This document shows, one piece after another, positions 43,376 through 59,392 of a stretch of DNA of 64,000 nucleotides (positions are counted from its first letter, which is position 1; each line of letters opens with the position of its first letter). The translations under genes were made by a program, and so were the position numbers. The DNA is from Lutibacter sp. (GTDB taxonomy: Bacteria > Bacteroidota > Bacteroidia > Flavobacteriales > Flavobacteriaceae), in contig NZ_JAEINV010000014.1 in NCBI RefSeq assembly GCF_016342705.1, positions 1 to 64,000 of the forward strand. The letters are read 5' to 3'. The notes beneath the pieces were generated by a model. It searched no databases, had not been told where the DNA came from, and was given only the letters and a program-made list of their open reading frames with translations.

Positions 43376-44681
43376 TGATCATCACACTCAATCCATAAAT
43401 AAATGCAGGAAATGCAATCCTCATGGCTGAATGATTGATGGTTAAAAACCAAAATATTAAAAACGCACTTAAAAATGCGCGTGCAAACATGGGTTGCTTT
43501 AGAATGGTACGCATAGGAATAATTACCAAAAGAAATAAAATGAACAAACCAATCATCCCATGCTCTCCTAAAAGACGACTCACTTCATTATGAGAAGCTG
43601 CCACAATATCCGATTCTTCCATTCTTTTATATTTAGAACCTCCAACCCCAATACCAAAGAAAGGATGTTCAAAAAAAGCTTCCAATTCACTTTCAAATAA
43701 ATCCACTCTTCCCGTACTAATATCTTCCTTCACTACCCCAGCCGCATTTTTGTTCTGATATCTATTGGTTAACATCCCACCCGTTAAATCAGAAGAATAG
43801 ATCCAAGTTCCCACTATAAATAAAAACCCGAATCCAACATATTTAAAAAAGCTATAGAATTTGTCTTCTTTTGATAAAATATAGAAAAATAGAAAGGCTA
43901 CAAAAGCCGCAAAAGCAGTCATCATCCCTCCTCGTGATAAGGTTATTAAACCTCTAAATACCAAATACATCAATAATAATACATCCAAGGTAAATAGATA
44001 CAAAAACCTTTTATTTGAAAACAAATGCACGGCCGCAATAAAAACACCCAAGCCTAAAATGGTCGCTACCTGATTAGGTCCAAACCCACCAGAAGTATCA
44101 AAATTTGCACCCCCTCCAAATGCAATTTCCTTTAAATTGGGAGTTTTAAAAAATAAATAACTCAACATAGATACAATGGGTAAACACATCACAAACAAGG
44201 CGTTTAACAGTGTTGCTACTTTTATTTTTCTTCCGTAAAAATAAATAGCCGATACGCCTAATAAAACAGGGCCACTTAAATTAAAAGCCACTGCCTTACG
44301 TATAGATTCCGTAAAAGGAATGTCTACAAATGCAATGCCAATCAATAATAATAAGATATAGATCAGGTAACTTACGGACACATGATGTCGTTTATCCTCC
44401 ACCAGCAACCCTACAAATAAAAAAAGTAATACGGTATATTTTGGTAGTTCATGAAATATCATGCCGCCAGACATTCTAAACAGCACTTCTCCCCCCACCA
44501 AATAAGCACTCCAAAACATGGCTTCATCATGCTTGTTTTTTGTTTTATAAATAACAATTAAGCCAATAAATAAAAGCAGCGTAGAGTAAATTTTACTAAA
44601 GGAACCTATTAACAATAATACACCCAATCCCAAATGCAGCAATGTAAATAGTAACCTTGTATATTTTGAAAAATTATACAC
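43329..44681 (-). CDS. O-antigen ligase/polymerase family membrane protein (Wzy-like)
   Basis: This 450-residue membrane protein has about 11-12 TM helices and one large periplasmic loop (about residues 310-370). The loop contains RVDLFESELEAFFEHPFFGIGVGGSKYK, a pattern typical of the Wzy_C domain, followed by the conserved SHNEVSRLLGEHGMIG. It should either polymerise repeat units (Wzy) or ligate them (WaaL-like); the sequence does not decide. The start is GTG at 44681, overlapping the previous stop by eight bases. Confidence 0.9.
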   Translation of the reverse strand: MYNFSKYTRLLFTLLHLGLGVLLLIGSFSKIYSTLLLFIGLIVIYKTKNKHDEAMFWSAYLVGGEVLFRMSGGMIFHELPKYTVLLFLFVGLLVEDKRHHVSVSYLIYILLLLIGIAFVDIPFTESIRKAVAFNLSGPVLLGVSAIYFYGRKIKVATLLNALFVMCLPIVSMLSYLFFKTPNLKEIAFGGGANFDTSGGFGPNQVATILGLGVFIAAVHLFSNKRFLYLFTLDVLLLMYLVFRGLITLSRGGMMTAFAAFVAFLFFYILSKEDKFYSFFKYVGFGFLFIVGTWIYSSDLTGGMLTNRYQNKNAAGVVKEDISTGRVDLFESELEAFFEHPFFGIGVGGSKYKRMEESDIVAASHNEVSRLLGEHGMIGLFILFLLVIIPMRTILKQPMFARAFLSAFLIFWFLTINHSAMRIAFPAFIYGLSVMIIDKEEELEENCIHRE

Positions 44682-45759
44682 GCTGATAGATTTTAATTAA
44701 TTCCTCCATATAGGCCGCTTTTGAAAAATACGTAGTGACAAATATATGCAATGCTCCCCCAAGTTGTAGGCTGATTGGTTTGTTATTTATCAAAAATAAG
44801 ATTGCTCCACTCAACGCTTGATGGTTTTCAGGAGCCACCAACACCCCTGTTTCATTCGGAACAATCACTTGAGGAATCGCTCCAACAGCAGTTGCAACTA
44901 CTGGTAAAGAAGTCAATCCATATTCCAATAAACTCACCGGTAACCCTTCCGATTTTGATGCTAATACGCCTATCGTCGTTTGTTTTAAAATTTGGTAGGT
45001 ATCCGAGCAATTTCCATAGATAAATACTGCATCTTGTAGCCCTTCTTTTTGAATCCATTCTTTTAATGTGGAAGCATAGCTATCATTTAAATCCGTTCCT
45101 ACTAAATGTAGTGTCCAATCTGGAAAATGTACGTGCACTATTTTAAACGCTTTTACTAAATTAAAATGATCTTTTTGAGGGCGTAAATTGGCTAAACATA
45201 GGATTCGTTTTCCATCACCTCCCTTTAAAATAGTTTTCTTTTTTATAGTGGTATTTAAATGGGCAAAATTAACCAAATAGGTGCTATAAGCACTATGCAA
45301 ATGACGCTTAGCCCAATCCAATAATAAGGCATTCACCGCAATACTGCTTTTAAAAAAGTAAGAACATATTTTTAGTGCTAAACGCTTTCTTTCTGCCAAC
45401 AATTCACTATTTCCATAATGATCGTGCCAAATAATTTGAACCGATGGTTTCAGGAGTTTTACCAATACCGCGCTAAAAAATGAAGAGGAATGCGCATGAA
45501 TGGTTGTAATTTCATGGTGAACTATATAAACCCGCAACCTCCATAGGGCTTTCAAATCCAGTGTTCCTTTTTTATGTAAAAACAAATATCCTACACCTTC
45601 CGAAATATTATTTTTTAAAGCCCCTTCCACACGCGTAGTACAAATATGAGAAGCTATACCTAACTCATATAAGCCATTCGCAATATTTACAGCCATCATT
45701 TCAGCTCCACCTGGCGTTAAAGAATCTATAATTTGTAGGACTTTTATGTGTTTGTTCAT
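44674..45759 (-). CDS. Glycosyltransferase family 4
   Basis: This GT-B enzyme shows the N-terminal KVLQIIDSLTPGGAEMMAVN motif, the middle ILCLANLRPQKDHFNLVKAF and the C-terminal SKSEGLPVSLLEYGLTSLPVV donor site. An in-frame open stretch extends to 45873, but those 38 residues (with HPKGEL and MKRVKLDD) derive from decayed palindromic repeats. The ATG at 45759 (MNKHIKV) gives 361 residues, normal for GT4, so I place the start there. The upstream repeat arrays separate it from the next glycosyltransferase. Confidence 0.87.
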   Translation of the reverse strand: MNKHIKVLQIIDSLTPGGAEMMAVNIANGLYELGIASHICTTRVEGALKNNISEGVGYLFLHKKGTLDLKALWRLRVYIVHHEITTIHAHSSSFFSAVLVKLLKPSVQIIWHDHYGNSELLAERKRLALKICSYFFKSSIAVNALLLDWAKRHLHSAYSTYLVNFAHLNTTIKKKTILKGGDGKRILCLANLRPQKDHFNLVKAFKIVHVHFPDWTLHLVGTDLNDSYASTLKEWIQKEGLQDAVFIYGNCSDTYQILKQTTIGVLASKSEGLPVSLLEYGLTSLPVVATAVGAIPQVIVPNETGVLVAPENHQALSGAILFLINNKPISLQLGGALHIFVTTYFSKAAYMEELIKIYQRV

Positions 45760-45773
45760 ATCATTTAATTCAC

Positions 45774-46375
45774 CCTTCGGATGTCTGTTTAAATCCGTCA
45801 TCTCAGCCCTGAGGTTAGATTCGTCATGCTGATTGACGTTCTGCTTCGCATCATCAAGCTTAACTCGTTTCAATAGCTCATCTTCATTCCGTTATGCTGA
45901 TCTCGTTTCAATAGCTCATCTTCATTCCGTCATGCTGAACTTGTTTCAGCATCTCATTCTTGTACTCCAAACCACCAGACCCTGAACTAAATTCAGGGTG
46001 ACGCTTGTTTTCGTCATGCTGAACTTGTTTCAGCATCTCATCGTTCATTCCGTCATGCTGAACTTGTTTCAGCACCCCATCCTTGTACTCCAAACCACCA
46101 GACCCTAAACTAAATTCAAGGTGACAGTTCATTGCGCTATGTCCAGAGTCGTCATGCTGAACTCGTTTCAATAGCTCATCTTCATTCCGTCATGCTGAAC
46201 TTGTTTCAGCATCTCATCCTTGTGTTCTAAATCATCAGACGCATAAACAAGTTCAAGGTGACAGTTCATTGCGCGATGTCCAGAGTCGTCATGCTGAACT
46301 TGTTTCAGCATCTCATCCTTGTGTTCTAAATCACCAGACCCTGAACTAAATTCAGGGTGACGATTGGTTATAACT
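45774..46375. repeat. Palindromic repeat array, family 1 (left of the GIY-YIG gene)
   Basis: This is an array of two 19-base hairpin modules: TGCTGAACTTGTTTCAGCA and CCCTGAACTAAATTCAGGG. Both have seven-base arms, five-base loops and the shared inner arms CTGAA/TTCAG. They are joined by 9- or about 22-base linkers. Copies between 45774 and 45900 are decayed. Read on the minus strand the array encodes HPEFSSGS and MLKQVQHD-like peptides (an open frame at 45908-46171), which I do not regard as a gene. Confidence 0.92.
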
Positions 46376-46385
46376 TATTATAATT

Positions 46386-46676
46386 TTATAAACTCAAATC
46401 GTCATACAAATCTAATAAATTTGGGTTTTTTTTCTTTATTAAATTCCACTTCCAATCCTTGTGCCACCTTTTTAACTGTTTTTCCCTTTCAATAGCTATT
46501 TCTATATCGCTAAACACTTCAAAATATAATAAATCCCAAACATTATATTTTTTTGTGAAGGTTGAACCTATCCCTTTTTTATGATTTTCAATTCTTTCTA
46601 TCAAATTTGAAGTTACTCCAATATATAAAGTGGTTCTTTTTTCATTGCTTAATATATAAATGTAACTTTCTTTCAT
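46386..46676 (-). CDS. Stand-alone GIY-YIG nuclease (UPF0213-like)
   Basis: The 96-residue protein is a single GIY-YIG domain. The two Tyr motifs are YIYILSN and LYIGVT, the catalytic Arg is in NLIERIENH and the metal-binding Glu is in AIEREKQLKRWHKDWK. It lacks a DNA-binding domain. The gene lies inside a gap between two arrays of the family 1 palindromes, with only about 10-20 bases on either side. Its role is unknown; a link to movement or repair of the repeats is my inference. It is unrelated to polysaccharide synthesis. Confidence 0.88.
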   Translation of the reverse strand: MKESYIYILSNEKRTTLYIGVTSNLIERIENHKKGIGSTFTKKYNVWDLLYFEVFSDIEIAIEREKQLKRWHKDWKWNLIKKKNPNLLDLYDDLSL

Positions 46677-46694
46677 CTATTTTTTTCCAATAAC

Positions 46695-47405
46695 TTCGTC
46701 ATGCTATTCTTGTTTCAATAGCTCATCGATCATTCCGTCATGCTGAACTCGTTTCAACATCCCTCTGTTCATTCCGTCATGCTGAACTTGTTTCAGCATC
46801 TTATCTTTGATTTCTAAATTTCCAGACCCTGAACTAAATTCAGGGTGACGCTTGTTTTCGTCATGCTGAACTTGTTTCAGCATCTCATCCTTCATTTCGT
46901 CATGCTGAACTCGTTTCAGCACCCCATCATTGTGCTCCAAATCACCAGACCCTGAACTAAATTCAGGGTGACGGTTCGTTGCGTCATGCTGAGAGTCGTC
47001 ATGCTGAACTTGTTTCAGTATCTCATCCTTCATTTCGTCATGCTGAACTTGTTTCAGCATCTCATCGTTTATTCCGTCATGCTGAGAGTCGTCATGCTGA
47101 ACTTGTTTCAGCATCTCATCGTTCATTCCGTCATGCTGAACTCGTTTCAGCACCCCATCATTGTGCTCCAAATCACCAGACCCTGAACTAAATTCAGGGT
47201 GACGCTTGTTTTCGTCATGCTGAACTTGTTTCAGCATCTCATCCTTCATTTCGTCATGCTGAACTTGTTTCAGTATCTCATCCTTCATTTCGTCATGCTG
47301 AACTTGTTTCAGCATCTCATCGTTTATTTCGTCATGCTGAACTCGTTTCAGCATCTCATCCTTACATTCCAAATTATGAGACCCTGAACTAAATTCAGGG
47401 AGACG
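46695..47405. repeat. Palindromic repeat array, family 1 (right of the GIY-YIG gene)
   Basis: About 710 bases of the same two hairpin modules, many at an exact 39-base step. Linkers include CATTGTGCTCCAAATCACCA-like spacers before the CCCTGAA module. Long frames stay open on both strands (for example 46704-47372 on minus), because 39 is a multiple of three. These frames are repeat by-products, not genes. The array ends five bases before the stop of the next glycosyltransferase. Confidence 0.92.
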
Positions 47406-47409
47406 TCCT

Positions 47410-49419
47410 TTATAACAACCTCCCTATTTCCTCTTTAAACCGTTCTAAGGTAAATGCTCTCGACCATTCCATCGCATTTTCCGCGTGCCTTTTATATGTT
47501 TCTTCATTGTTTATATAACCTTCAACAACTCGTACAATAGCTGCTACATTTGTAGAAACTAAGGTTCCTCTACTCCCATTCCCTAACATTTCTGGAACAC
47601 AAGAAACGGCACTGGATAAAGGAACACATCCCCAAAACATGGCTTCTGCAACCACTTTTGGCCAACCCTCAGATTTTGATATAAACACTAAAAAATGTGC
47701 TTGCTGGTAGGCTTTCTTTACGATTTCTTTATGTGCATTTCCATGTAAAAAAACCACTTCTTCTAAGGAATTATCTAATATATAGTCTGAAATTTTAGTT
47801 CTTTCTATACCTTCACCATACATATCTAACTGAACGTTATAGCCTTTCCTTTTTAATTCGTGTACCACTTGCACACTTAATAAGGGTTGTTTTCCAGGTA
47901 CTAAACCTCCTACGTATATAAATTTTAGTTTGTTAGCTGGAAACCCTGAACTAAATTCAGGGTGACGGTTCGTTGCGCCATGCTGAACTTGTTTCAGCAT
48001 CTCATCGTTCATTCCGTCATGCTGAACTTGTTTCAGCATCTCATCCTTTATTTCGTCATGCTGAACTTGTTTCAGCATCTCATCCTTTATTTCGTCATGC
48101 TGAACTTGTTTCAGCATCTCATCCTTCATTTCGTCATACTGAACTTGTTTCAGCATCTCATCCTTCATTCCGTCAGGCTGAACTTGTTTCAGTATCTCAT
48201 CATTGTACTCCACACCATGAGACCCTGAACTAAATTCAGGGTGACGTTTGTTTTCGTCATACTGAACTTGTTTCAACATCTCATCATTGTGCTCCAAACC
48301 ATCAGACCCTGAAATAAATTCAGGGTGACGGTTCATTGCGCCATGTCCAGAATCGTCATGCTGAACTTGTTTCAGCATCCCATCCTTATTTTGTGAAATG
48401 TTTCTAATTTCAACCGCTTCAATTTCTTCCTCCGAATAACTCGCAGTAAAAAAAGGGACAATATTTTTGCTTTGATTTGGCCAATCCCCATATACCAATA
48501 CTTTACAATTACGGGTCAAAAAAGTATTGGAAACGATCCATTTTTGAAGCCGATAACTCCTAGGTTGTGCACTCTTAGGATCCCAATTACCAGCATATTT
48601 TACGGTTTTTGGTTTGTTCATAAATAATAGTTGCACAACACAACCCAACAATCCAATATTTCCAGGACACCGCAGATGAATATGATCAGCCCATTGCATG
48701 GCTTTATAAATAGTATAGCAGATGTTAGGGATTTTTAAAATTGCATCTATACTGTTCTTTATGGAAGTAATAGCAAATGCAGGTATTTTAATTAATTGAA
48801 TATCTTTCTTTTTGTTATCCAGAGAGTCGACATGCTGAACTTGCTTCAGCATCTCATCTTTCATTTCGTCATGCTGAACTTGTTTCAGCATCTCATTATT
48901 GTGTTCTAAATCATCAGACCCTGAACTAAATTCAGGGTGACGGTTCGTTGTATCGTTTTGCGAATCACTTTCTATCGCATCGTCATGCTGAACTTGTTTC
49001 AGAATCCCATCATTGTGCTCCACACCATCAGACCCTGAACTAAATTCAGGGTGACGGTTCGTTGCGTCATGCAGAGAGTCGTCATGCTGAACTTGTTTCA
49101 GCATCTCATCATCGTTCTCCACATCATCAGACCCTGAACTAAATTCAGGGTGACGGTTCATCGCGTCATGCTGAGAGTCGTCATTGCGAGGAGTGTGCGA
49201 CGTGGCAATCTCTTCATGCTGAGCTTTATTGAAACCTTGTTTCCTAAATTCATACATTACATCTATCGCACTAACTTCATCCTCTGAAACTGGCGCAACA
49301 ATCTGCACTTCATCCACATATTGCAACCACAAATTCATTTCCTTTACATAAGGCTCATAGCCAAAAATTTCATTTTCATGAAGTTTATGTTCGGCATGTG
49401 TAATGATTACGAATTTCAT
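47410..49419 (-). CDS. Glycosyltransferase family 4 with two in-frame palindromic-repeat insertions
   Basis: Outside the repeats this is a normal GT4 enzyme. It starts MKFVIITHAEHKL and contains MNLWLQYVDEVQIVAP, a central acceptor part (ADHIHLRCPGNIGLLG, KYAGNWDP) and a donor domain (FIYVGGLVPGKQPLLSV and SKSEGWPKVVAEAMFWGCVP). Counting from the upstream in-frame ATG at 49437, residues of about 72-207 and 349-499 consist only of HPEFSSGS/MLKQVQHD repeats. Without them the protein is about 390 residues, the family length. No stop or frameshift interrupts the 669 codons, so the gene may still be expressed. I prefer the ATG at 49419, six codons downstream, as the start. Whether the enzyme is active is unknown. 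Confidence 0.85.
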   Translation of the reverse strand: MKFVIITHAEHKLHENEIFGYEPYVKEMNLWLQYVDEVQIVAPVSEDEVSAIDVMYEFRKQGFNKAQHEEIATSHTPRNDDSQHDAMNRHPEFSSGSDDVENDDEMLKQVQHDDSLHDATNRHPEFSSGSDGVEHNDGILKQVQHDDAIESDSQNDTTNRHPEFSSGSDDLEHNNEMLKQVQHDEMKDEMLKQVQHVDSLDNKKKDIQLIKIPAFAITSIKNSIDAILKIPNICYTIYKAMQWADHIHLRCPGNIGLLGCVVQLLFMNKPKTVKYAGNWDPKSAQPRSYRLQKWIVSNTFLTRNCKVLVYGDWPNQSKNIVPFFTASYSEEEIEAVEIRNISQNKDGMLKQVQHDDSGHGAMNRHPEFISGSDGLEHNDEMLKQVQYDENKRHPEFSSGSHGVEYNDEILKQVQPDGMKDEMLKQVQYDEMKDEMLKQVQHDEIKDEMLKQVQHDEIKDEMLKQVQHDGMNDEMLKQVQHGATNRHPEFSSGFPANKLKFIYVGGLVPGKQPLLSVQVVHELKRKGYNVQLDMYGEGIERTKISDYILDNSLEEVVFLHGNAHKEIVKKAYQQAHFLVFISKSEGWPKVVAEAMFWGCVPLSSAVSCVPEMLGNGSRGTLVSTNVAAIVRVVEGYINNEETYKRHAENAMEWSRAFTLERFKEEIGRLL
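47941..48393. repeat. Family 1 repeat insertion inside the GT4 gene, interdomain site
   Basis: About 453 bases of family 1 modules fall between the acceptor half and the donor half of the glycosyltransferase (residues of about 349-499). Six MLKQVQ-type units from residue 415 to 480 are spaced exactly 13 residues (39 bases). It begins with CCCTGAACTAAATTCAGGG and ends in a CATCCCATCC variant. Confidence 0.92.
48817..49224. repeat. Family 1 repeat insertion inside the GT4 gene, N-terminal site
   Basis: About 408 bases of family 1 modules interrupt the N-terminal domain (residues of about 72-207). At its right end (about 49180-49215) is a fragment resembling the second repeat family (GTCATTGCGAGGAG...GGCAATCTC), so elements of two families have landed side by side here. 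Confidence 0.9.
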
Positions 49420-49487
49420 AGGATTGTTTCGGTGCATTCAAAAATAAGATTAAAAAGTAATATCTAAGAATATTTTTCTACTTTTTA

Positions 49488-49505
49488 CCCCTCCCTAAAG
49501 GGTGA
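49488..49505 (+). repeat. 18-bp direct repeat, left copy
   Basis: CCCCTCCCTAAAGGGTGA, preceded by a CTTTTTA run. An identical copy in the same orientation lies at 50039-50056. The pair brackets the DUF559 gene. The core CCCTAAAGGG is nearly palindromic. Confidence 0.9.
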
Positions 49506-49565
49506 AGCCGAAAAATTATCAAATTTAGAACTCATATATTGAAAAAAGAACGCAATAGTTTTAGA

Positions 49566-49973
49566 TTAGCTATTTTTCAATTCAATCTTTCTTATTTGAT
49601 TTTTAATTTGATCTATGACATTCGAAATATCTTTTTCCACTTCTTGATTCGTACATCGGAATACTATAAGTCCATTAAATTCTAAAAAAGTGGTTCTTTC
49701 TTTATCTTTAAGTATTTGCGCTTGTTTTTCATGGTATCTACCATCTATTTCAATGACTAATTTTAGTTTATGAATATAAAAATCAACAATATATTTTCCA
49801 ATGGGATGTTGTCTTCTAATTTTATACCCCAATACTTTAGCATCTTTTAACTTTTCCCACAATAGATATTCAGAATTAGTCATATGTGCTCTTAGATTTT
49901 GAGCCTTTTGAAAGGTATCACATTTAGCCCCTTTCCACATACTTACATCTAATTGATTTTTATCTATTTTCAT
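49566..49973 (-). CDS. DUF559 endonuclease-fold protein (Vsr-like)
   Basis: The 135-residue protein belongs to the DUF559/endonuclease-like family of the restriction-endonuclease fold. Conserved features are NSEYLLWEKLKDAKVLGYKIRRQHPIG, IVDFYIHKLKLVIEIDGRYH with the Asp/Glu metal site, and LEFNGLIVFRCTNQEV. The resemblance is to very-short-patch repair nucleases, but activity is unproven. The gene is a passenger in the polysaccharide locus and is flanked by two identical 18-bp repeats. Confidence 0.88.
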   Translation of the reverse strand: MKIDKNQLDVSMWKGAKCDTFQKAQNLRAHMTNSEYLLWEKLKDAKVLGYKIRRQHPIGKYIVDFYIHKLKLVIEIDGRYHEKQAQILKDKERTTFLEFNGLIVFRCTNQEVEKDISNVIDQIKNQIRKIELKNS

Positions 49974-50038
49974 TTGTACTCTTATAACTATAATTTTAAA
50001 ATTGAGTTTTATTTGTCATAGGCTTTTCCGCTTTTATC

Positions 50039-50056
50039 CCCTCCCTAAAGGGTGAG
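50039..50056 (+). repeat. 18-bp direct repeat, right copy
   Basis: Exact copy of 49488-49505, 551 bases away. Related CCCTTTAGGG-type palindromes continue to 50163. Confidence 0.9.
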
Positions 50057-50139
50057 CGATAAAACTATAATAGACCTTCTTTGTTGATATTAAAAAATAA
50101 CTCCCTTTAGAGTTACATTCCTCTATTATCATTGAAAAA

Positions 50140-50163
50140 TAGCCCCCTTTAGGGTTGGGGCTA
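50140..50163 (-). terminator. Hairpin built from a CCCTTTAGGG-type repeat, possible terminator
   Basis: TAGCCCC/GGGGCTA arms around a ten-base loop are followed on the minus strand by T5. It lies 11 bases past the stop of the GT2 gene, so the repeat may act as its terminator. Confidence 0.55.
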
Positions 50164-50174
50164 ACTATTTTTCA

Positions 50175-51158
50175 TTACATAGGCCTATTCAAAAATAAGG
50201 AAAACCACCCTACTAACCTACCCAATGCTTCTGTAAACGCTTCTTTTTTATGACTTCCAGTCATACTATTGATAAAACGAAGTTTTAATAATACGATTAC
50301 ATTAAAGTGAAATAACAACTTGGCTTTTAATGTAGGTTTTGGATATTTTACACGCCATACATACCAACCATTCCGCACGACCATTTTACCGTAATTATAT
50401 TTATTAGGTCTCCCAGCCTCATGATGATGATGCTCTAATTGAGCAGCGGTATTCACATATAAATTCCCTAATTTCGCAACTCTTAAACAAAAATCCATAT
50501 CTTCATACAAACCATAGCCCTCAAAATAGGTGGAAAATTGAATCTTTTCAAAAATTGTTGTTTTATAAGAAGCAACACCTCCCATAAAAAATTCTACAGG
50601 GTAAATTTTATTGCTAGGAGGTAAATGACCAATGGAGCGACCATGAGAAAATATAGGCATAAAACCAGGTAAGGTATCATCCATTAAACCTAAAATCTTT
50701 CGTAACTTAAACCGTGCACTCTCTTTTCGGCAATAACCATCTAAACAATATCCGTTAGCTATAGGAGTTGTTTGCCATTTCACCTCATTAGTAATATACC
50801 CTCCAACACCTAATGCATTCGCTTTTAGCTGATAAGTTCCAATTAAAGATTCAAAATACGAAGGTTCTAAAATGGTATCATCATCTAAAAAGCAAACTAC
50901 TTCACTTTCTTTTGCTATTTTTAAGATACCAAAATTCCGTTGTTTTGTTAAGCCTCTATTTTCTTTTGAAACCAAATAGTAGTGTAGATTTTTATAGTTT
51001 TTTTCAGCCAATACTATTTCAGTAGCAGTATCAAGTGAACCATCCACTACAATAATTTCATTGGGATATACGGTTTGTTGCAACACCGAGTCTAACAATG
51101 TAATCATCGCCTCCGGACGCTGGTACGTGCATATAATAAGACTAAATTTCATTTTCAT
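50175..51158 (-). CDS. Glycosyltransferase family 2
   Basis: This 327-residue GT-A enzyme is typical of rhamnosyl- or similar transferases. Sequence features are FSLIICTYQRPEAMITLLDSV, NEIIVVDGS, a DDD metal site in VVCFLDDDTILEP, and a YGLYEDMDFCLRVAKLG acceptor/catalytic segment (the ED of family 2). It overlaps the upstream membrane-protein gene by 17 bases; an ATG two codons later (MKFSLI) is equally likely as start. Confidence 0.9.
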   Translation of the reverse strand: MKMKFSLIICTYQRPEAMITLLDSVLQQTVYPNEIIVVDGSLDTATEIVLAEKNYKNLHYYLVSKENRGLTKQRNFGILKIAKESEVVCFLDDDTILEPSYFESLIGTYQLKANALGVGGYITNEVKWQTTPIANGYCLDGYCRKESARFKLRKILGLMDDTLPGFMPIFSHGRSIGHLPPSNKIYPVEFFMGGVASYKTTIFEKIQFSTYFEGYGLYEDMDFCLRVAKLGNLYVNTAAQLEHHHHEAGRPNKYNYGKMVVRNGWYVWRVKYPKPTLKAKLLFHFNVIVLLKLRFINSMTGSHKKEAFTEALGRLVGWFSLFLNRPM

Positions 51159-52449
51159 GTTTTGAGGGAAGTATTTTTGACATAAGCTTAAATAAAAAAT
51201 TATAATTTAATTGAATAAAACAAAATAACATTGTAAGTGAATATATTGAATTAAATCTTAATCCTGTATATATATACGCAGACATTATAATCTGACCAAC
51301 AAATACTGCTAGAATAACTAAATAAATTTTATCATCTTTAGAATTATAATCTATTTTATTTTTTTTAATTACCCTAAATATCAATTGAAGAAAAGTAAAC
51401 ACGTATAAAATTCTAAATAAAATTGAAAGTGTTTCCAAAAATCCTGGTTTTGGTTTTTCCGGAAAAGGATTGAAATTTGATCTTAATTTTTTAATGACGA
51501 TATTAAATTTCTCTTTAAAGCTAATACTATTGATAAAATTTTTAGTTCCTTCTAAATATAATTTACTTCTGGTTAATATACTTTTATCTATATCTTTCAA
51601 TAAATTATCATCAACATATTTTAAATTTAAAGTTTCATTAGCCAAATCACCATCAGTATTTGTAAATTCTTTAGCCACTTTTTCATTCCATCCTTTTGAT
51701 AGTGTTGCTCCTTGAGAAGCTGTTAAATATAAACCTTTATTAAATGTCGCTTGATTTCTATATGGCCAAGCTAGCAATAATAACGAAAATAAAATACCAT
51801 GAACTAAAACAATTGAAAAATTTGATCTTAGGTTAAAAATCAAATAAATAATAAAAAGTGTAACTACAAAAAAAATAGATACAGGATGGCATAAAATTAT
51901 AAATGCAGACAAAATTGGAATCGCAATATGATAATTTTTAGTCTTATTTAGTGAAATAAAATATATTGTAAGTAATAATATTAGTATTGCTGTTAAACTT
52001 TCTGATAAAAAAGTAACAGAATATTTTAAATATTGTGGTTCAATAAAAACTAAAAAGAAAGGCAACAAATAAATTAATTTTAATTTTGACTTATTTTTAT
52101 ATTTCAATAATGCAAAAATGATAAGACCAATTTCAAGAATAGATTTTAAAAAAATTAAATTCAATACGTCCGTCGTGAATCTAAAGAAGAATGAGAGTAT
52201 AAATGGCCAAAAAGGCGGTCTCCAAGTTGCTAATTCTGATGCTTCACTCGAATTGGTGTCAGAATAAACATTATAATCAGCAATATTTTTACCAATCCTT
52301 AAATAATGACTTGCATCTCCATTATTGTAAGCTGCAACATCTTTATAAGAGTTATTAAGTTTCGATAAATATAAGTAATAAAATTTCACTGAAATTAAAC
52401 TGATAATAATAAGTAATACAATCCAATTTTTAGAAAAAAAATATTTCAT
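51142..52449 (-). CDS. GT39-like polytopic glycosyltransferase
   Basis: The 435-residue integral membrane protein has about 10-11 TM helices. An extracytoplasmic loop after the first helix contains NGDASHYLRIGKNIADYNVYSD and TWRPPFWPFILSFF, which resembles the acidic motif of ArnT/PMT-type (GT39/83) enzymes. Such enzymes use a polyprenyl-phosphate sugar as donor. The upstream neighbour is a DPM1-like GT2 that would make this donor, which supports the call. Confidence 0.75.
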   Translation of the reverse strand: MKYFFSKNWIVLLIIISLISVKFYYLYLSKLNNSYKDVAAYNNGDASHYLRIGKNIADYNVYSDTNSSEASELATWRPPFWPFILSFFFRFTTDVLNLIFLKSILEIGLIIFALLKYKNKSKLKLIYLLPFFLVFIEPQYLKYSVTFLSESLTAILILLLTIYFISLNKTKNYHIAIPILSAFIILCHPVSIFFVVTLFIIYLIFNLRSNFSIVLVHGILFSLLLLAWPYRNQATFNKGLYLTASQGATLSKGWNEKVAKEFTNTDGDLANETLNLKYVDDNLLKDIDKSILTRSKLYLEGTKNFINSISFKEKFNIVIKKLRSNFNPFPEKPKPGFLETLSILFRILYVFTFLQLIFRVIKKNKIDYNSKDDKIYLVILAVFVGQIIMSAYIYTGLRFNSIYSLTMLFCFIQLNYNFLFKLMSKILPSKHENEI

Positions 52450-52451
52450 AG

Positions 52452-53177
52452 TTATTTTAATATTTTATATTTCAGTATACAATATAAAGCCCTAACTCCA
52501 TCTTTCCAACTAATCTTTTTTCCCTCTTCAAAAGTTCTTCCGTAATAACTAATTCCTACTTCATAAATTCTAATACAAGGTATTCTTGCTATTTTTGCGG
52601 TAACCTCAGGTTCAAAACCAAATCTTTTTTCTTTAAGATCCAATGATCTAATTATATCTGTTCTAAACATTTTGTAACAGGTTTCCATATCTGTTAAATT
52701 TAAATTTGTCAACATATTACTCAAAAATGTAAGAAATTTATTTCCTATACTATGCCAAAAAAACAAAATCCGATGAGGGTTGCCTCCTATAAACCTACTT
52801 CCATAAACTACATCCGCAAAATCATCTACAAAAGGCTTTAAAAGCATATTAAATTCATTTGGGTCATATTCCAAATCTGCATCTTGAATTACAAGAATTT
52901 CTCCAGTTGCATTTTTAATACCTGTATGCAATGCTGCTCCTTTACCCCTATTTTTATTATGTTCTAAATATAAAATATTATGTTCTAAATTATTATTCAT
53001 ATAAACATTGATTTTATCATAAGTATTATCTTTGCTAAAATCATTAACGATAATTATTTCTTTTTGAATATTATTAATTAATTTAACTTGATTTATTTTA
53101 TTCAAAATTTCATAAATAGTTGATTCCTCGTTAAATACAGGTACTACAATCGATAATTTCTTAATATTATTATTCAT
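52452..53177 (-). CDS. Polyprenyl-phosphate glycosyltransferase (DPM1-like GT2)
   Basis: This 241-residue GT2 protein resembles dolichol-phosphate mannosyltransferase: IVVPVFNEESTIYEIL, DFSKDNTYDK, LEHNKNRGKGAALHTGIKNA, ILVIQDADLEYDPNE with the DAD metal site, and VYGSRF. It should load a sugar onto undecaprenyl phosphate for use by a membrane GT. It lies two bases before the GT39-like gene, giving a plausible two-gene module. Confidence 0.9.
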   Translation of the reverse strand: MNNNIKKLSIVVPVFNEESTIYEILNKINQVKLINNIQKEIIIVNDFSKDNTYDKINVYMNNNLEHNILYLEHNKNRGKGAALHTGIKNATGEILVIQDADLEYDPNEFNMLLKPFVDDFADVVYGSRFIGGNPHRILFFWHSIGNKFLTFLSNMLTNLNLTDMETCYKMFRTDIIRSLDLKEKRFGFEPEVTAKIARIPCIRIYEVGISYYGRTFEEGKKISWKDGVRALYCILKYKILK

Positions 53178-53205
53178 GAGGTTTTAATAATTAATTTGTA
53201 GCCAT

Positions 53206-54753
53206 TTAAAATTTTGATTTAGCCATTAATTCATTAGCCCAAAATATACTTTTGTTCCATTGTTGATGTAAACTAAAAAAATAGGTAATTGGATTCTTTA
53301 TTTTTTGAACTTTATAATATTTGAAAAACAAAATAGTTTTATACCCTTTCAACTGTTCAATAGTATTATGCTTTAAATTAAAAAGCATCACTGTAGGTGA
53401 AGGTTTTGGCTGTATTATTTCATCACTCCATAGTAATGTAGGTTTGGTTCTAAAACCACCGATAGGGGCTTTAAGGTGACTTATATAAGGAGAAGGCAAA
53501 TAATATATATCGACTCCTAACTTTCTAAGTTGCATTCCAAAATCTGCATCCTCACCAAAACCAAATTCATATCCTACTTCAAACTTGCATTGTTCAATAC
53601 TAGTTGATTTTGCAATACTGCAGCCTGAGCCAAAACTATTCCACTGAAAATAATTTGTAAACGGTACTATCTCATGTTGCTGAATACATGCAAATGAAGC
53701 TACTTCCACACCAATAGAAGACATATTATTCATTGCCATTGAAATGAATTTATTATCAAACCGAATATCATCATCCGCAAAAAATACCCATTCACTTTCT
53801 ATTTCACGCAAGGCAATATTACGCGCATTGCAAGCACCTGCCTGATGCGTAAAGGTATGTTTAATCTCAAATGGCCAATTTTCATTCGTCAAATAATCCA
53901 ACTCCGAAACGCTGTCTTCTAAAGGGTTTTGCTCTACAATAATCACATTTTTAGGTAGGTGCGTTTGCTTACGTAAATCACACAATACATCATATAAATA
54001 GGCTTTACGCCCAATAGTTGGAATAATAACATCTATGGTTGCCGTTTCCAGTGTTTTTAAAGAACTCTCTATACTAATTTTATCTAAATCTACCTCAACC
54101 TTACGGTTCGATGTATAAAAAAGTGCGACTATAAATGGAATGACTGAACATTTCTTTTCAAAGATCAATTCATTCAAAAACAATAAAAATAACCAACGTA
54201 ATTTATAATGTTGCTTTACAAACTTATACACCGTCATTCTTGAACTTTTGGGTGCTTGTTTTACATATTCCCCCTGTAATAAATTAGGTTCAGAATAACA
54301 AAACAAACCTTTTGGCATCGATAATTTTGCAAATGAATTTAAAAAATAATCAAAATCTTGTGTAGGTGTTATCTCCTTTTTTAAGGCAAGCAATACGGAT
54401 GCATGTATTGCTCCCACAGCACTACTCATTTGCCAAGTTGGATACCGAACCAATTTATTTATGTTCATAAATGGAGACTGCTCTACATACCCCATAGTGG
54501 ATGAAAAATAATGATGATCCGTAGGATTAAATGAAAGTATCATTTTATGATGGTGAAAGTAGTTGGGAAGATCCGCACTGTTTAAATTGTCCTTATACCA
54601 TTCATGACACCAAACGATGAGTTCTTCCGGAAATTGGGAAGCAACCGCTTTCAATATAAATGCAATACTCTTTTTCAGTGGAAATGGAATATTTCCATTG
54701 CTTTCAGATACAATTTTTGAAACGTTCTTATTTTTATGATAAATAATAATCAT
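53206..54753 (-). CDS. Glycosyltransferase family 2 with an extra N-terminal domain
   Basis: The 515-residue protein has a GT2 domain from about residue 237: VIIPTIGRKAYLYDVLCDL, NVIIVEQNP, the metal-binding FFADDDIRFD and an EDADFGMQLRKLG segment. The first 230 residues (IAFILKAVASQFPEELIVWC...) form a domain that I do not recognise; it has a Rossmann-like look with an ILSFNPTDHHYF segment. A second activity on the same chain is possible. The ATG starts immediately after the previous stop. Confidence 0.83.
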   Translation of the reverse strand: MIIIYHKNKNVSKIVSESNGNIPFPLKKSIAFILKAVASQFPEELIVWCHEWYKDNLNSADLPNYFHHHKMILSFNPTDHHYFSSTMGYVEQSPFMNINKLVRYPTWQMSSAVGAIHASVLLALKKEITPTQDFDYFLNSFAKLSMPKGLFCYSEPNLLQGEYVKQAPKSSRMTVYKFVKQHYKLRWLFLLFLNELIFEKKCSVIPFIVALFYTSNRKVEVDLDKISIESSLKTLETATIDVIIPTIGRKAYLYDVLCDLRKQTHLPKNVIIVEQNPLEDSVSELDYLTNENWPFEIKHTFTHQAGACNARNIALREIESEWVFFADDDIRFDNKFISMAMNNMSSIGVEVASFACIQQHEIVPFTNYFQWNSFGSGCSIAKSTSIEQCKFEVGYEFGFGEDADFGMQLRKLGVDIYYLPSPYISHLKAPIGGFRTKPTLLWSDEIIQPKPSPTVMLFNLKHNTIEQLKGYKTILFFKYYKVQKIKNPITYFFSLHQQWNKSIFWANELMAKSKF

Positions 54754-55980
54754 CTAATCTATTAAGGTTTTGTAAAACTCAATATTCTCCATCACTTTTT
54801 TATCAATGTCAAACAACTGCTCAACACGATTTCTGGCATAAATCCCCATGGTTGCACGAAGTTCATCATTTTTTAACAACTCCACAATTTTTGAAGCATA
54901 TTCTTGATGGTTTGCCGGATGCACTAAAAAACCACTTTCACCGTCTATAATCAATTCTTGCGCCCAACCTATATTACTATTTACCACTGCTTTCTGCATG
55001 GCCATAGACTCAATAGTGACCATCCCTAAAGTTTCAGCATAGGTAGGAAACACACATACATGGGCTTTTTTAATATACGCTTGTACAGCTTCATACGGCA
55101 CTTTCCCTAAATAGGTAACGTTTAATTCAGTTGTAGGAACTTTCACTACACTTGAACCTTCTACCGCTTTCGATTGCATCGTAGCTGTATGTGTCACTTC
55201 AAGCGCAGTTGAGAAGTGTTTAAACTGTTGTTCCAACAATTTCCATGTGGAGAGCGCATTGGTTGTAATATCAGGAGCATCTCCTCCAATTAATACCAAA
55301 TGAGCTTTAGGATATTTTCCGTGCACTTGTTTCAATATTTCAGGCAATTCCAATACGCCTTTTTTACGAATAATCGTCCCTAAATAAAGTATTAAACCAT
55401 CTTCAAATTGACTCGCTGGAACTTTTTCAAAATTATCCAATTTTAAACCGTAATGAATAGTTTTAATTTCTTTATTCTTAATATGAAACAAGCGTTTTGA
55501 AACGGTGCCTGCATAAGAAGTTGGCGCAATAAATGCTTTCGCTTTCCGAATGGCTAATTTTTCGAACCAATAATTCTTTACTTTTTGTTTTCGCTGTTCT
55601 AAATGACAAAAATAAGTGTCACTTCCATGAAACCGAATCACTAAAGGAATCTTAAATTTCATAAAAGCGGTAATACCTGTCCAATCAGGTGCTTCAATAA
55701 TAGCAATTTGTTGTTCTGTGATTACTTTGTTACAATAGTTTTGAAGGTGTTTTCTGTAGCGATACCATTTACCAAAAGTATAGGCTTTATTTTCAATCTT
55801 GTGAATGGTTACCCCATTATCATCAAAAATTTCATTGTTCTTTTGGGAATACACAAAAACTGTTATCTCATGACCTGCGCGCACTAATGCTTGCACCAGG
55901 TTTTTAATACTTGAACCTAACCCCGCTGAATGCCCCGTTTTTTCATGTGGATATTCTGGTGTTAAATAGGCTATTTTCAT
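54754..55980 (-). CDS. Glycosyltransferase family 4
   Basis: This GT-B enzyme starts MKIAYLTPEYPHEKTGHSAGLGSSIKN, a classic GT4 N-terminal (glycogen-synthase-like) loop. The donor site reads VFPTYAETLGMVTIESMAMQKAVVNS. An insert of about 35 residues rich in Thr and Ala lies near residue 250. I chose the ATG at 55980, which overlaps the previous stop by four bases (TCATGA), over 56007. This gives 408 residues. Confidence 0.9.
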   Translation of the reverse strand: MKIAYLTPEYPHEKTGHSAGLGSSIKNLVQALVRAGHEITVFVYSQKNNEIFDDNGVTIHKIENKAYTFGKWYRYRKHLQNYCNKVITEQQIAIIEAPDWTGITAFMKFKIPLVIRFHGSDTYFCHLEQRKQKVKNYWFEKLAIRKAKAFIAPTSYAGTVSKRLFHIKNKEIKTIHYGLKLDNFEKVPASQFEDGLILYLGTIIRKKGVLELPEILKQVHGKYPKAHLVLIGGDAPDITTNALSTWKLLEQQFKHFSTALEVTHTATMQSKAVEGSSVVKVPTTELNVTYLGKVPYEAVQAYIKKAHVCVFPTYAETLGMVTIESMAMQKAVVNSNIGWAQELIIDGESGFLVHPANHQEYASKIVELLKNDELRATMGIYARNRVEQLFDIDKKVMENIEFYKTLID

Positions 55981-57383
55981 GATAATAGTTGGTTTATATG
56001 TTCCCATATTCGCTCAGAAGCCTTCATGGGTTCTTTCCCTGCAACAATTTCAAACCATTGCTTACCTTCTTGTACATTTGATAATGATCCATTTAAAATA
56101 GCAGCCACCAAGCCTTCTAACTCTTTTTTATCTGTACAAAATACAGCAGCGCTCGTACTAGGCATACTTCTAAAATGCACGTATTTGTAATTTTGACCGA
56201 TATCCCGAATTCCTTTTTTTAATTGAGGCTGTTCATAATTATAATAAATACACGGTTTATTGTGCACTACAAAATCAAAAACTGTAGACGAGCAAACGTT
56301 GGTTACAAATTCACTATGCGCACAAACATTGTATAACATGTTAAAATCTTCTTTCTCTGGCAATACTTCATTCCATTGTTTTCCTACTTGTTTCCAAATG
56401 GGATCTAACACTTTAATAATATCCTTATGTTCCGCTAGCACTGTAGCATACCTGTTTGTAAAATCGACAGGGCACTTTCTGTATATAATCCCTAGGTTTG
56501 CTCCTTTTGAATTTAAATTCCTCACTGCCTTTGCCAAATCTTCTAAATAATACTGATCTAATGGTGAGGTTGTTTCATCATCCCCTGAAAAACAAATATA
56601 CTTTTTATCAATATCTAAATTGTATTGTTTAAAAAATGCTGCTTTAGATTGTTTTAACGCCGTATTAAAATGGGGTTCAAATTGCGGGGTACCCGTTACA
56701 AAAATTTGTTCAGCTTTTACAAAATCATAATATTTCAATACCTCTGCTTTCATTAAATCACTCCAAACCACATAATAATCAGTCTCTACCACCTGCATTG
56801 CTTTGGGTACATTGTCCCAAGAATATACAAATGTAACCGTGGGAATTCCCAAATCTTTGGCTGCCAATAAGGCACTTATTGCTTGGGTAGCTCTTTGCGT
56901 AGTACAAAATATTAAGGCAGGTTTATGCTGTTGTAATTGTGCTTTGCAATAGGCGTATTTAGGATTCTTTCGTTCCAAACTATGTATTCTTTTTCTGATA
57001 CGCACCAATCCACTTTCCGAATTGTTGAAGCCGATGAGTGTTTTTATAAAAAGAGTTTTGATACTGTTTTTAATTCCTTGGTAGCTAAACGGAAACTTAT
57101 ACGTTGCATATACCGAATCATTGAACTTTTTCTGAGAAATATTTAATTCAATATGCTTTTTTGCTCTTGCATATAAAGGTGTTAAAGGATGGATCTTATG
57201 ATTTTCTATTTTAACCTCCTTAAAACCTAAATTATCTTTTAAAGAAAACACCGTATTGTTCCAATACTGAATATCAAAACCCATGGATTCTCCTATTTCT
57301 TTAAAATTGGTAAATGCAAAATTTCGCAAGCCCACACCATCAGGAAAAAATACAAAAACTTTCTTTTTCATGCTATTATTCAC
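55977..57383 (-). CDS. GT-B-like glycosyltransferase, unassigned family
   Basis: The 468-residue soluble protein has a GT-B look. The N-terminal half starts KKKVFVFFPDGVGLRNFAFTN. A middle segment IFCTTQRATQAISALLAAKDLGIPTVTFVYSWDN and the later VTGTPQF, CFSGDDETTSP and VCSSTVFDFVVHNKPCIYY resemble UDP-glycosyltransferases and CDP-glycerol-type transferases. The product is unknown. An ATG four codons in (57371, MKKKVF) is a likely alternative start. It is the first gene downstream of the family 2 repeat block. Confidence 0.7.
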   Translation of the reverse strand: MNNSMKKKVFVFFPDGVGLRNFAFTNFKEIGESMGFDIQYWNNTVFSLKDNLGFKEVKIENHKIHPLTPLYARAKKHIELNISQKKFNDSVYATYKFPFSYQGIKNSIKTLFIKTLIGFNNSESGLVRIRKRIHSLERKNPKYAYCKAQLQQHKPALIFCTTQRATQAISALLAAKDLGIPTVTFVYSWDNVPKAMQVVETDYYVVWSDLMKAEVLKYYDFVKAEQIFVTGTPQFEPHFNTALKQSKAAFFKQYNLDIDKKYICFSGDDETTSPLDQYYLEDLAKAVRNLNSKGANLGIIYRKCPVDFTNRYATVLAEHKDIIKVLDPIWKQVGKQWNEVLPEKEDFNMLYNVCAHSEFVTNVCSSTVFDFVVHNKPCIYYNYEQPQLKKGIRDIGQNYKYVHFRSMPSTSAAVFCTDKKELEGLVAAILNGSLSNVQEGKQWFEIVAGKEPMKASERIWEHINQLLS

Positions 57384-57460
57384 TACTTTTTAATCAATTT
57401 ATATACGTTTTACAAACTTACAATTTAATTATTATTTCTTGAAGGGAATTCCTTTCCGAT

Positions 57461-58560
57461 ACACTTTTATTCCTTTTCATTTCATAAAACCACTGGAAGT
57501 GACGTTTCAATGAATCCGTCATTGCGAGGAGCGATAGCGACGAAGCAATCTGTAACTTTAGCATATCGATTCCCAACCAAAAGATTGCTTCAGTTATTTT
57601 TTCCGCTATGCTTCACAAATACCTTCGCAATGACGTTCCATTATCATGCTGAGCCCTTCGACTGCGCTCAGGACAGGCTAAAGTCGAGAACCAATTACCG
57701 ATTCGAGGGGCTAGGGGTTTGTTTTTCATAACAAAATTTTAGTTTAGTCGCTACAGATTGCTTCATTTCACGGTGTTTCATTCGCAATGACATTTCATCG
57801 TCAGTTCGAGTGACGCAGTGCAACGAAGGTGTATCGAGAACCAGTGCGCAATTCTTCTCGATACAGTTTTATTCCATTTCATTTCATAAAACCACTCGAA
57901 GTGACGTTTCAATGAATCCGTCATTGCGACGAAGCAATCTGTAACTTTAGCATATCGATTCCCAACCAAAAGATTACTTCAGTTATTTCTTCCGCTTTGC
58001 TTCACAAATACCTTCGCAATGACATTCCATCGTCATGTCGAGCCCTTCGACTACGTGCAGGACAGGCTAAAGTCGACATCCAATAACTGACTCCCGGCTG
58101 GAGAGGGGCTAGGGGTGTGTTTTTCATAACAAAGTTTAAGTTTAGTAGCGACAGATTGCTTCATTGCACTGCGTTTCATTCGCAATGACATTTCATCGTC
58201 AGTTCGAGTGCCGCAGTGCAACGAAGGTGTATCGAGAACCAGTGCGCAATACTTCTCGATACAGTTTTATTCCATTTCATTTCATAAAACCACTCGAAGT
58301 GACGTTTCATTGAATCCGTCATTGCGAGGAACGATAGCGACGAAGTAATCTGTAACTTTAGCAAATCTATTACCAACCAAAAGATTACTTCAGTTATTTC
58401 TTCCATTATGCTTCACAAATACCTTCGCAGTGACTTTTCATTGTCATGTCGAGCGCAGTCGAGACACTATAATATAACAAATATCTTTCAAGAAATACCA
58501 CTTCACGTCTTCAGCTTGTCCTGCAAGTAGTCCAAGGGCTCGAAGTGACAACAATAAACT
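57461..58560. repeat. Tandem 400-bp composite repeat, family 2 (2.5 copies)
   Basis: Copies start at about 57461, 57863 and 58261 (402 and 398 bases apart); the third is truncated near 58440. Each unit holds GTCATTGCGAGGA...CGACGAAGCAATCTG, its inverse near CTTCGCAATGAC, GAGCCCTTCGACT...CAGGACAGGCTAAAGTCGA, a GAGGGGCTAGGGGT box and CAGTTCGAGTG...GGTGTATCGAGAACC. These are mini-palindromes of several kinds. Three open frames (57510-57731 plus, 57778-57969 and 58176-58406 minus) are parts of the repeats, not genes. Confidence 0.88.
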
Positions 58561-58562
58561 AT

Positions 58563-59390
58563 TTAATTTTTTGATTTAAACGGACAAACATCCATAAGTC
58601 CTTTTTTTAATTGTTCAATAGTTTGTACGGTAGGTAAACTTGGGTAGTTTGTAAATAAGGCCTCCAATTCTAGTTGGGTATATTCAGTAGTTCTTATACT
58701 TGGTTGATAAAAAGGTAAAGCAACAGATTCCATATAATCTTCGTACTTAATATTATCTCCAAATACTTTATCTGAAAACTTTTGCCAAACCGCTGGAATT
58801 TGATAGGTATGCGCTACAATAATTCCATGCAACGAGGATGAAACTATTTTTTTACAACGCAGTATTTCATTGGTTTTAGACGCTACATCATTGGTCATAA
58901 GGTTGATAATACAAATTTTATCATTTCCTTTAAACCACTCCTTTACCAAATGCATATCATTATAATGAGGAATAATTCCGTATTCGTATTTTTTTTCAAT
59001 GGTGGGTTGATAATAATTGGGCAACAACAATGCTGGATCTCCATAAATTTCAGGCACATTACACCCCTTTTCTAATAAGAACGCTCTTGTTTTAGGGCCT
59101 CTAACAGCTAAAAACTGTGCGTTTTTCACATGATATTGTTTTGAAATTATACCACTACCCCATACAATACAATACCTATTTACATGCGTTAATATGCTGC
59201 CGGCTGTAACATAAATAGGACGTATCCAATTCCAAATTGAAAATGTAGACGGCTTTACCCAAACAACTTTTTTATTCGCTATTTTTTCAACTAAATAAGC
59301 GCCAATTAAATCGCCATAATTTTCATGTGTTTTCCCTTGAATTTTAATTTCATTCCACCAAAAGAGACGTATTTTATTTGAAAATAGCAT
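58563..59390 (-). CDS. Polysaccharide pyruvyl transferase family protein
   Basis: This 275-residue protein of the PS_pyruv_trans (CsaB-like) family would add a pyruvate ketal, or in some members a sugar, to a polysaccharide. Features are NYGDLIGAYLVEKIANKKVVWVK at the start, the AVRGPKTRAFLLEKGC segment, EIYGDPALLLP and the C-terminal CKKIVSSSLHGIIVAHTYQIPAVW with the conserved Ser-x-x-His. It starts two bases after the NeuB-like gene and is in the same operon. Confidence 0.85.
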   Translation of the reverse strand: MLFSNKIRLFWWNEIKIQGKTHENYGDLIGAYLVEKIANKKVVWVKPSTFSIWNWIRPIYVTAGSILTHVNRYCIVWGSGIISKQYHVKNAQFLAVRGPKTRAFLLEKGCNVPEIYGDPALLLPNYYQPTIEKKYEYGIIPHYNDMHLVKEWFKGNDKICIINLMTNDVASKTNEILRCKKIVSSSLHGIIVAHTYQIPAVWQKFSDKVFGDNIKYEDYMESVALPFYQPSIRTTEYTQLELEALFTNYPSLPTVQTIEQLKKGLMDVCPFKSKN

Positions 59391-59392
59391 TT

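What the first reader, a model, noticed from the sequence alone, without database searches (positions are those of the whole stretch)
47410..49437. Glycosyltransferase gene invaded twice by palindromic repeats, still open in frame
The GT4 sequence is continuous and of normal length only when two blocks of about 136 and 151 residues are removed. Both blocks are the same HPEFSSGS/MLKQVQHD repeats that lie between genes nearby. Neither introduces a stop or frameshift. One block lies in the N-terminal domain, the other between the two Rossmann halves, a site that may tolerate inserts. This recalls the Rickettsia palindromic elements that insert in frame into protein genes, but the family here is different and sits in a flavobacterial surface locus. 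The gene may be an active enzyme with disordered inserts, or a decaying one kept open by the repeats' frame.
Basis: partly seen in the sequence, partly recalled or inferred. Interest (0 to 1): 0.85.

Follow-up and report, generated by a model that had tools for sequence, protein, structure and literature searches.

The report
Sugar-transferase gene filled with DNA hairpins
A flavobacterium carries a sugar-transferase gene into which two large blocks of short hairpin-forming DNA repeats have been inserted without breaking the reading frame, and the same repeats surround a small nuclease gene that may be what moves them.

Summary
Observation confirmed. The minus-strand ORF 47410-49437 (675 aa) is a GT4 glycosyltransferase with two in-frame blocks (aa ~70-208 and ~350-501; 43% of the ORF). 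None of 29 aligned homologues has a residue in either. Both blocks are arrays of CGTC-tagged REPs (18 units). Di Nocera et al. 2013 place Rickettsia RPE-4 and RPE-6 in this super-family and report in-frame intragenic units, so the family is not 'different'; these blocks exceed the 43-82 aa given there. The core shows no decay: 88 of 91 near-invariant residues kept, within the homologues' range. The same genome has a second in-frame REP dimer, in mevalonate diphosphate decarboxylase (mvaD), a gene under purifying selection whose loop is re-invaded across the genus. Such inserts are therefore tolerated. New lead: small GIY-YIG nuclease genes, one of which lies inside this array, often lie beside CGTC REPs (34 of 105 loci; 9 of 30 loci from another class), unlike UvrC or DUF559 genes. 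They are candidates for the 'missing' CGTC-REP mobiliser. Expression, activity and mobilisation are untested.

The parts
47410..49437 (-). GT4 glycosyltransferase ORF, 675 aa, with two REP blocks
49231..49437 (-). GT N-terminal piece, aa 1-69 (native start probably Met7, 49419)
48814..49230 (-). Block 1, aa 70-208: 7 REP units (48828-49155) and one CGTCATTGCGAGGAG repeat (49179-49193)
48391..48813 (-). GT middle piece, aa 209-349
47935..48390 (-). Block 2, aa 350-501: 11 REP units (47942-48378)
47410..47934 (-). GT C-terminal Rossmann domain, aa 502-675 and stop
46736..47405 (.). Right intergenic REP array, 16 units, open in one frame
46386..46676 (-). GIY-YIG nuclease gene, 96 aa, between the two intergenic arrays
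   Evidence: PF01541, 7.6e-18
45928..46362 (.). Left intergenic REP array, 9 units, closed in all frames

Best explanation
A GT4 gene of a flavobacterial polysaccharide locus (genus Lutibacter by inference) was entered at two permissive sites by CGTC-tagged REP hairpins, which multiplied in whole units (mostly 39, 84 and 99 bp, multiples of three). SHOWN: two in-frame REP arrays absent from homologues; each open in one frame of six; conserved core intact; a second in-frame REP dimer in mvaD of the same genome, in a loop that is re-invaded across the genus. INFERRED: the REPs came from the neighbouring array around the GIY-YIG gene by local copying (recombination, slippage or a REP-specific nuclease); selection removed insertions that broke the frame or the fold; the enzyme is still made with two hydrophilic, acidic, probably unstructured inserts that are tolerated rather than useful.
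For: Site lengths constant in 29 homologues, 159 and 167 residues here. 88 of 91 conserved columns kept; homologues tested the same way miss 0-13. Inserts GRAVY -1.51 and -1.28, net charge -25 and -16, core -0.19 and +4. Block 2 lies just before the C-terminal domain, where PDB matches begin (profile positions 174-224). mvaD: in-frame dimer; loop of 16-57 residues in 29 aligned genomes, REP detected in 9; dN 0.029, dS 0.37 against the nearest relative, which shares the insert. In-frame REPs in other bacteria (PMC3733652, section 15).
Against: No expression or activity data. The arrays look recent (13 exact copies of one 26-mer), so an intact core may only mean too little time for decay. The right intergenic array is also open in one frame, so openness alone does not show selection. 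The direction of copying is not settled. The structure prediction was too poor to use (mean pLDDT 39.9).
Confidence: 0.7

Rival explanations
1. Very young pseudogene: the inserts already abolish activity, and the frame is open only because the arrays are recent and happen to be in frame.
For: Many units are identical; 43% of the ORF is insert; no close relative allows dN/dS for this gene: the two genus relatives matched (G047, G269) are only 32-39% identical.
Against: No change at the conserved core beyond the homologues' range; four junctions in frame; a REP-bearing mvaD is under purifying selection.
Confidence: 0.2
2. The inserts are useful: repeat number varies among cells and tunes the enzyme or its binding, giving surface-sugar variation.
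For: Unit lengths are multiples of three; the gene lies in a polysaccharide locus; many unit copies are identical.
Against: No strain comparison was possible; the mvaD inserts in a housekeeping enzyme suggest tolerance, not function; no other genome of 397 has the block in a frame longer than 180 aa.
Confidence: 0.07
3. Assembly artefact: repeats misjoined into the gene.
For: The genome is a draft of 35 contigs; repeats are hard for short reads.
Against: Four junctions are in frame, units differ from one another, and an independent in-frame case lies elsewhere in the genome and in its relatives.
Confidence: 0.03

Closest known systems
CGTC-tagged REPs (Di Nocera et al. 2013, PMC3733652; abstract, passages, section 15, part 1 of section 17)
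   Same: CGTC tag, 8-bp stem, 5-base loop, dimers with tags outside, in-frame intragenic units
   Different: Blocks of about 139 and 152 aa here against 43-82 aa for the larger clusters there; dense clusters, called rare for CGTC; a GIY-YIG gene in the array
Rickettsia palindromic elements RPE-4 and RPE-6 (as described in PMC3733652 and PMC10969869, passages; original papers not read)
   Same: In-frame palindromic repeats in protein genes; placed in the CGTC super-family by PMC3733652
   Different: Other host; arrays of many units; RPE sequences not compared here
GTAG REPtrons with TnpA-REP / RAYT (PMC8266576, passages)
   Same: A nuclease-type gene flanked by inverted tagged hairpins
   Different: GIY-YIG instead of an HuH tyrosine enzyme; CGTC instead of GTAG; no activity shown; the window's own gene has the opposite REP orientation
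PARCELs (PMC2996958, abstract)
   Same: Palindromic DNA repeats translated as tandem peptide repeats
   Different: 25-residue amphipathic domains in ORFs without assigned function; here REPs inside an identified enzyme

Membership tests
CGTC REP super-family | Unpaired CGTC tag at one end | tested here: met
CGTC REP super-family | Stem 8-9 bp, loop 4-5 | tested here: met
   8-bp stem, 5-base loop in both unit types
CGTC REP super-family | AT residues first and second in the stem, almost invariably | tested here: inconclusive
   One unit type starts AT, the other AC
CGTC REP super-family | Short unpaired tail, mostly CCA | tested here: inconclusive
   Tails here are mostly CTC or CCC
CGTC REP super-family | Dimers with tags outside predominate | tested here: met
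   Recurrent pair 50 bp start to start, tags outside; tandem units also occur
CGTC REP super-family | Dispersed in the genome | tested here: met
   76 core matches in this genome, 0 for the reversed control; 35 of 38 genus genomes
CGTC REP super-family | Not associated with transposase genes | tested here: inconclusive
   Association with GIY-YIG genes, which are not transposases
Rickettsia RPE-4/RPE-6 | Sequence of the RPE consensus | not tested
   Super-family membership rests on PMC3733652
GT4 glycosyltransferase | Glycos_transf_1 domain | tested here: met
GT4 glycosyltransferase | E-x7-E motif (recalled) | tested here: met
   Present at aa 590-598, both E invariant in 11 homologues
GT4 glycosyltransferase | Pfam N-terminal GT4 domain | tested here: not met
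   No hit in the whole ORF, the domain being split by block 1; the homologues were not scanned
REPtron | Gene between inverted tagged REPs | tested here: inconclusive
   15 of 20 two-sided GIY-YIG loci are inverted, 11 with tags outside; the window's own locus has tags inside
REPtron | HuH tyrosine enzyme | tested here: not met
   GIY-YIG domain
REPtron | Enzyme cuts its REP | not testable with these tools
   Needs biochemistry

The most novel reading that the evidence does not exclude
CGTC REPs, said in 2013 to lack a dedicated enzyme, are mobilised by (or are homing targets of) small GIY-YIG nucleases whose genes lie between CGTC REPs. This array is such a unit, which multiplied and threw its hairpins into the neighbouring glycosyltransferase; the same process keeps re-invading permissive loops of other enzymes such as mvaD.
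Probability: 0.3. Interest if true: 0.85.

Novelty: new variant of a known kind. Interest (0 to 1): 0.62.

Why it matters
It shows in-frame palindromic repeats in a flavobacterium, with blocks 1.7-1.9 times the largest named in the paper that defined the repeat family, and gives one genus-wide loop (mvaD) in which gain, exchange and decay of such inserts can be followed. It also offers a concrete candidate, GIY-YIG, for the open question of what moves CGTC REPs, testable with one purified protein and a hairpin oligonucleotide.

Tried and rejected
Rejected: that an open frame alone shows selection; the right intergenic array is open too. Rejected: DUF559 (49566-49973) as the REP-associated gene: 2 of 30 DUF559 loci hold a detector hit, one being this locus, the other about 660 bp away; most of the 30 are long fused proteins, so the control is imperfect. 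UvrC: 2 of 20 loci had a detector hit, both unlike the REP consensus by eye.

Led nowhere: Rfam, 0 matches in 44000-60000. AlphaFold on a four-row alignment of window proteins: mean pLDDT 39.9, not used. Other genomes with the block in a long ORF: 5 of 396 others match, longest frame 180 aa; single REPs would mostly be missed. L179 and L200 looked like a moved copy but share their whole 3.2 kb at 99.7%, so no moved unit is delimited.

Results against the GIY-YIG reading: 71 of 105 loci have no REP within 300 bp; the window's own gene has the minority orientation, tags inside (L172); the other three own-genome GIY-YIG loci fetched (L185-L187) have no REP; the CCGT control tag hit 6 of 30 loci, probably the same elements one base out of register, not checked; the orientation bias is weak (p about 0.02-0.03).

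Dropped rows: mvaD 34 of 38 genomes matched, 30 loci fetched, L301 failed my motif filter, 29 aligned. GIY-YIG: 112 loci, 6 duplicates dropped, 105 of 106 gave an ORF; start codons approximate. REP hits outside the array: 19 of 31 were fetched as loci, some overlapping. PMC9465073 holds 'GIY-YIG' and 'extragenic palindrom' once each (search listing only).

Mended since: the own-locus orientation and the L185-L187 result were added, with the novel-case probability lowered from 0.35 to 0.30 for them; the closed arrays are now counted by genome.

Full report
OBSERVATION. The ORF at 47410-49437 (minus strand) is 675 codons without a stop. Its C-terminal part is a GT4 domain (PF00534, aa 495-657, E 1.8e-24). 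The middle piece, searched alone, matches 157 of 299 Flavobacteriaceae genomes at E<=0.001; in the capped list most open frames are about 368-403 aa, a few 446-846. In an alignment with 29 homologues only the query has aa 63-208 and 350-502. None of the 29 has a residue in aa 70-208 or 350-501, and the two sites are otherwise nearly constant in length: 11-15 and 13-14 residues against 159 and 167 here.

WHAT THE BLOCKS ARE. Two hairpin types alternate: CGTC-ATGCTGAA-cttgt-TTCAGCAT and, inverted, CGTC-ACCCTGAA-tttag-TTCAGGGT. By sequence, 43 units lie in 45928-49155: 9 in the left spacer array, 16 in the right one, 11 in block 2, 7 in block 1. A detector that asks only for CGTC plus an 8-bp stem finds 37 in the window, all in this stretch; seven permuted tags give 0 or 1, none there. 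Typed unit consensus strands fold with the tag unpaired in the minimum-energy form. Tag, stem, loop and dimers with tags outside are features of the CGTC REP super-family of Di Nocera et al. 2013 (PMC3733652; abstract, passages, section 15, part 1 of section 17). Tail (mostly CTC or CCC, not CCA) and first stem bases (AT in one type, AC in the other) fit less well. That paper places Rickettsia RPE-4 and RPE-6 and neisserial dRS3 in the super-family, reports in-frame intragenic units, and gives 43-82 aa for the larger ones.

FRAME. Each block is open in one of six frames; the others hold 3 to 25 stops. Unit spacings add up to multiples of three inside the gene and, with one exception (46150 to 46188), outside it. 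The right intergenic array, not in the GT frame, is also open in one frame; the left one is closed. Arrays in three other genomes (L226, the same array as L233, and L236; L227; L228) are closed in all frames. I infer that the arrays here descend from copies of coding-compatible unit length. The direction of copying is not settled; the longest exact sharing with the spacer arrays is 44 bp (block 1) and 60 bp (block 2).

IS THE ENZYME ALIVE? Of 91 columns at least 90% conserved in 29 homologues the query keeps 88; homologues tested the same way miss 0 to 13 (gaps not counted for them). Block 2 lies just before the C-terminal Rossmann domain, where PDB matches to the profile begin (positions 174-224). 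Block 1 lies in an N-domain loop. The inserts are hydrophilic and acidic. There is no sign of decay, but the arrays look young (13 exact copies of one 26-mer), so this is not proof. Structure prediction was uninformative.

A SECOND CASE IN THE SAME GENOME. Of 31 REP hits outside this locus (20, 11), 19 were fetched as loci, some overlapping. One, L033, lies in a long ORF, diphosphomevalonate decarboxylase (PDB matches, the insert falling in an 18-residue gap of the two alignments shown). In the genus 34 of 38 genomes matched. In 29 aligned sequences the loop measures 16 to 57 residues. The detector (stem at least 6 of 8) marks a CGTC hairpin in 9 of 29, with different stems (AACC/GGTT, ATTC/GAAT, ATGC/GCAT) at the same place; by eye 6 carry an unrelated repeat of GAGCGGAGTCGAAG type there, one of them together with a REP. 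Against the nearest relative (G304), which shares the insert, dS is 0.37 and dN 0.029; inside the insert 1 synonymous difference in 13.5 sites against 59 in 194 elsewhere. A core-pathway enzyme thus keeps such an insert through speciation; that mvaD is essential is recalled, not tested. A 25-aa dimer query finds no third such ORF in this genome (23 matches: 22 in this locus, 1 in mvaD).

A CANDIDATE MOVER. The array surrounds a 96-aa GIY-YIG gene. In 62 named loci of relatives, 23 have a CGTC REP within 300 bp, against 0-3 for nine control tags; density is 1.12 per kb in the first 500 bp and 0.05-0.17 beyond. Of intergenic gaps in these loci, 26 of 77 beside the gene hold a REP against 12 of 272 others (p 7e-11, simple ORF caller). 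With genus loci added, 34 of 105 have one within 300 bp and 20 have them on both sides; 15 of these 20 are inverted, 11 with tags outside and 4, the window's own among them, with tags inside (p 0.02). In L097, L098, L099 and L108 the pair sits 9 bp before and 4-6 bp after the gene; the first three are syntenic and not independent. The trait clusters on the protein tree: 12 changes against a shuffled mean of 29, 0 of 500 as low; many forks are unresolved and near-copies help. Controls: of 20 genus loci (three of them repeats of loci in other sets), 6 have a REP within 300 bp, but the three from this genome have none; of 20 UvrC loci 2 have a hit, neither REP-like; DUF559 2 of 30. In the class of the genome behind L148 (a Rickettsiales record, so presumably Alphaproteobacteria), 76 of 190 genomes match; of the 30 loci fetched, 9 have a CGTC REP within 300 bp, control tags 0-2 except CCGT with 6. 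The 2013 paper states that CGTC REPs seem to lack a dedicated transposase. Searches of an open-licence library showed no paper linking GIY-YIG to REPs in title or abstract start; one paper holding both terms was not read. The nuclease could mobilise REPs, home into them, or merely be tolerated beside them.

VERDICT. It is a known kind, the in-frame intragenic CGTC REP, in an extreme form. The genus-wide mvaD loop and the GIY-YIG association are the parts most worth following.

Noticed in passing
L276-L305 (mvaD loci of the genus; own copy G000:C14:66687-67829): One loop of diphosphomevalonate decarboxylase carries in-frame inserts of at least two unrelated repeat families, with CGTC hairpins of different stems at the same place.
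   Followed up: partly
window 46386-46676 and GIY-YIG loci L093-L204, L314-L343: Small GIY-YIG nuclease genes often lie beside CGTC REPs.
   Followed up: partly
window 57400-58560: A spacer without a long ORF, built of direct repeats about 400 bp apart, with CGTCATTGCGAGGAG-type units at 57517, 57919 and 58317; the same unit sits once in block 1 at 49179.
   Followed up: no
window 45780-45873: The neighbouring GT4 ORF (44674-45873) has an N-terminal extension that looks like decayed REP peptide; its real start may be further in.
   Followed up: no
G432 (genome behind L148, a Rickettsiales record): A 2.2-Mb genome with 14 GIY-YIG matches, 12 of them in frames of 83-154 aa.
   Followed up: no
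window 49566-49973: A DUF559 nuclease-like gene directly beside the glycosyltransferase, without REPs of its own.
   Followed up: partly
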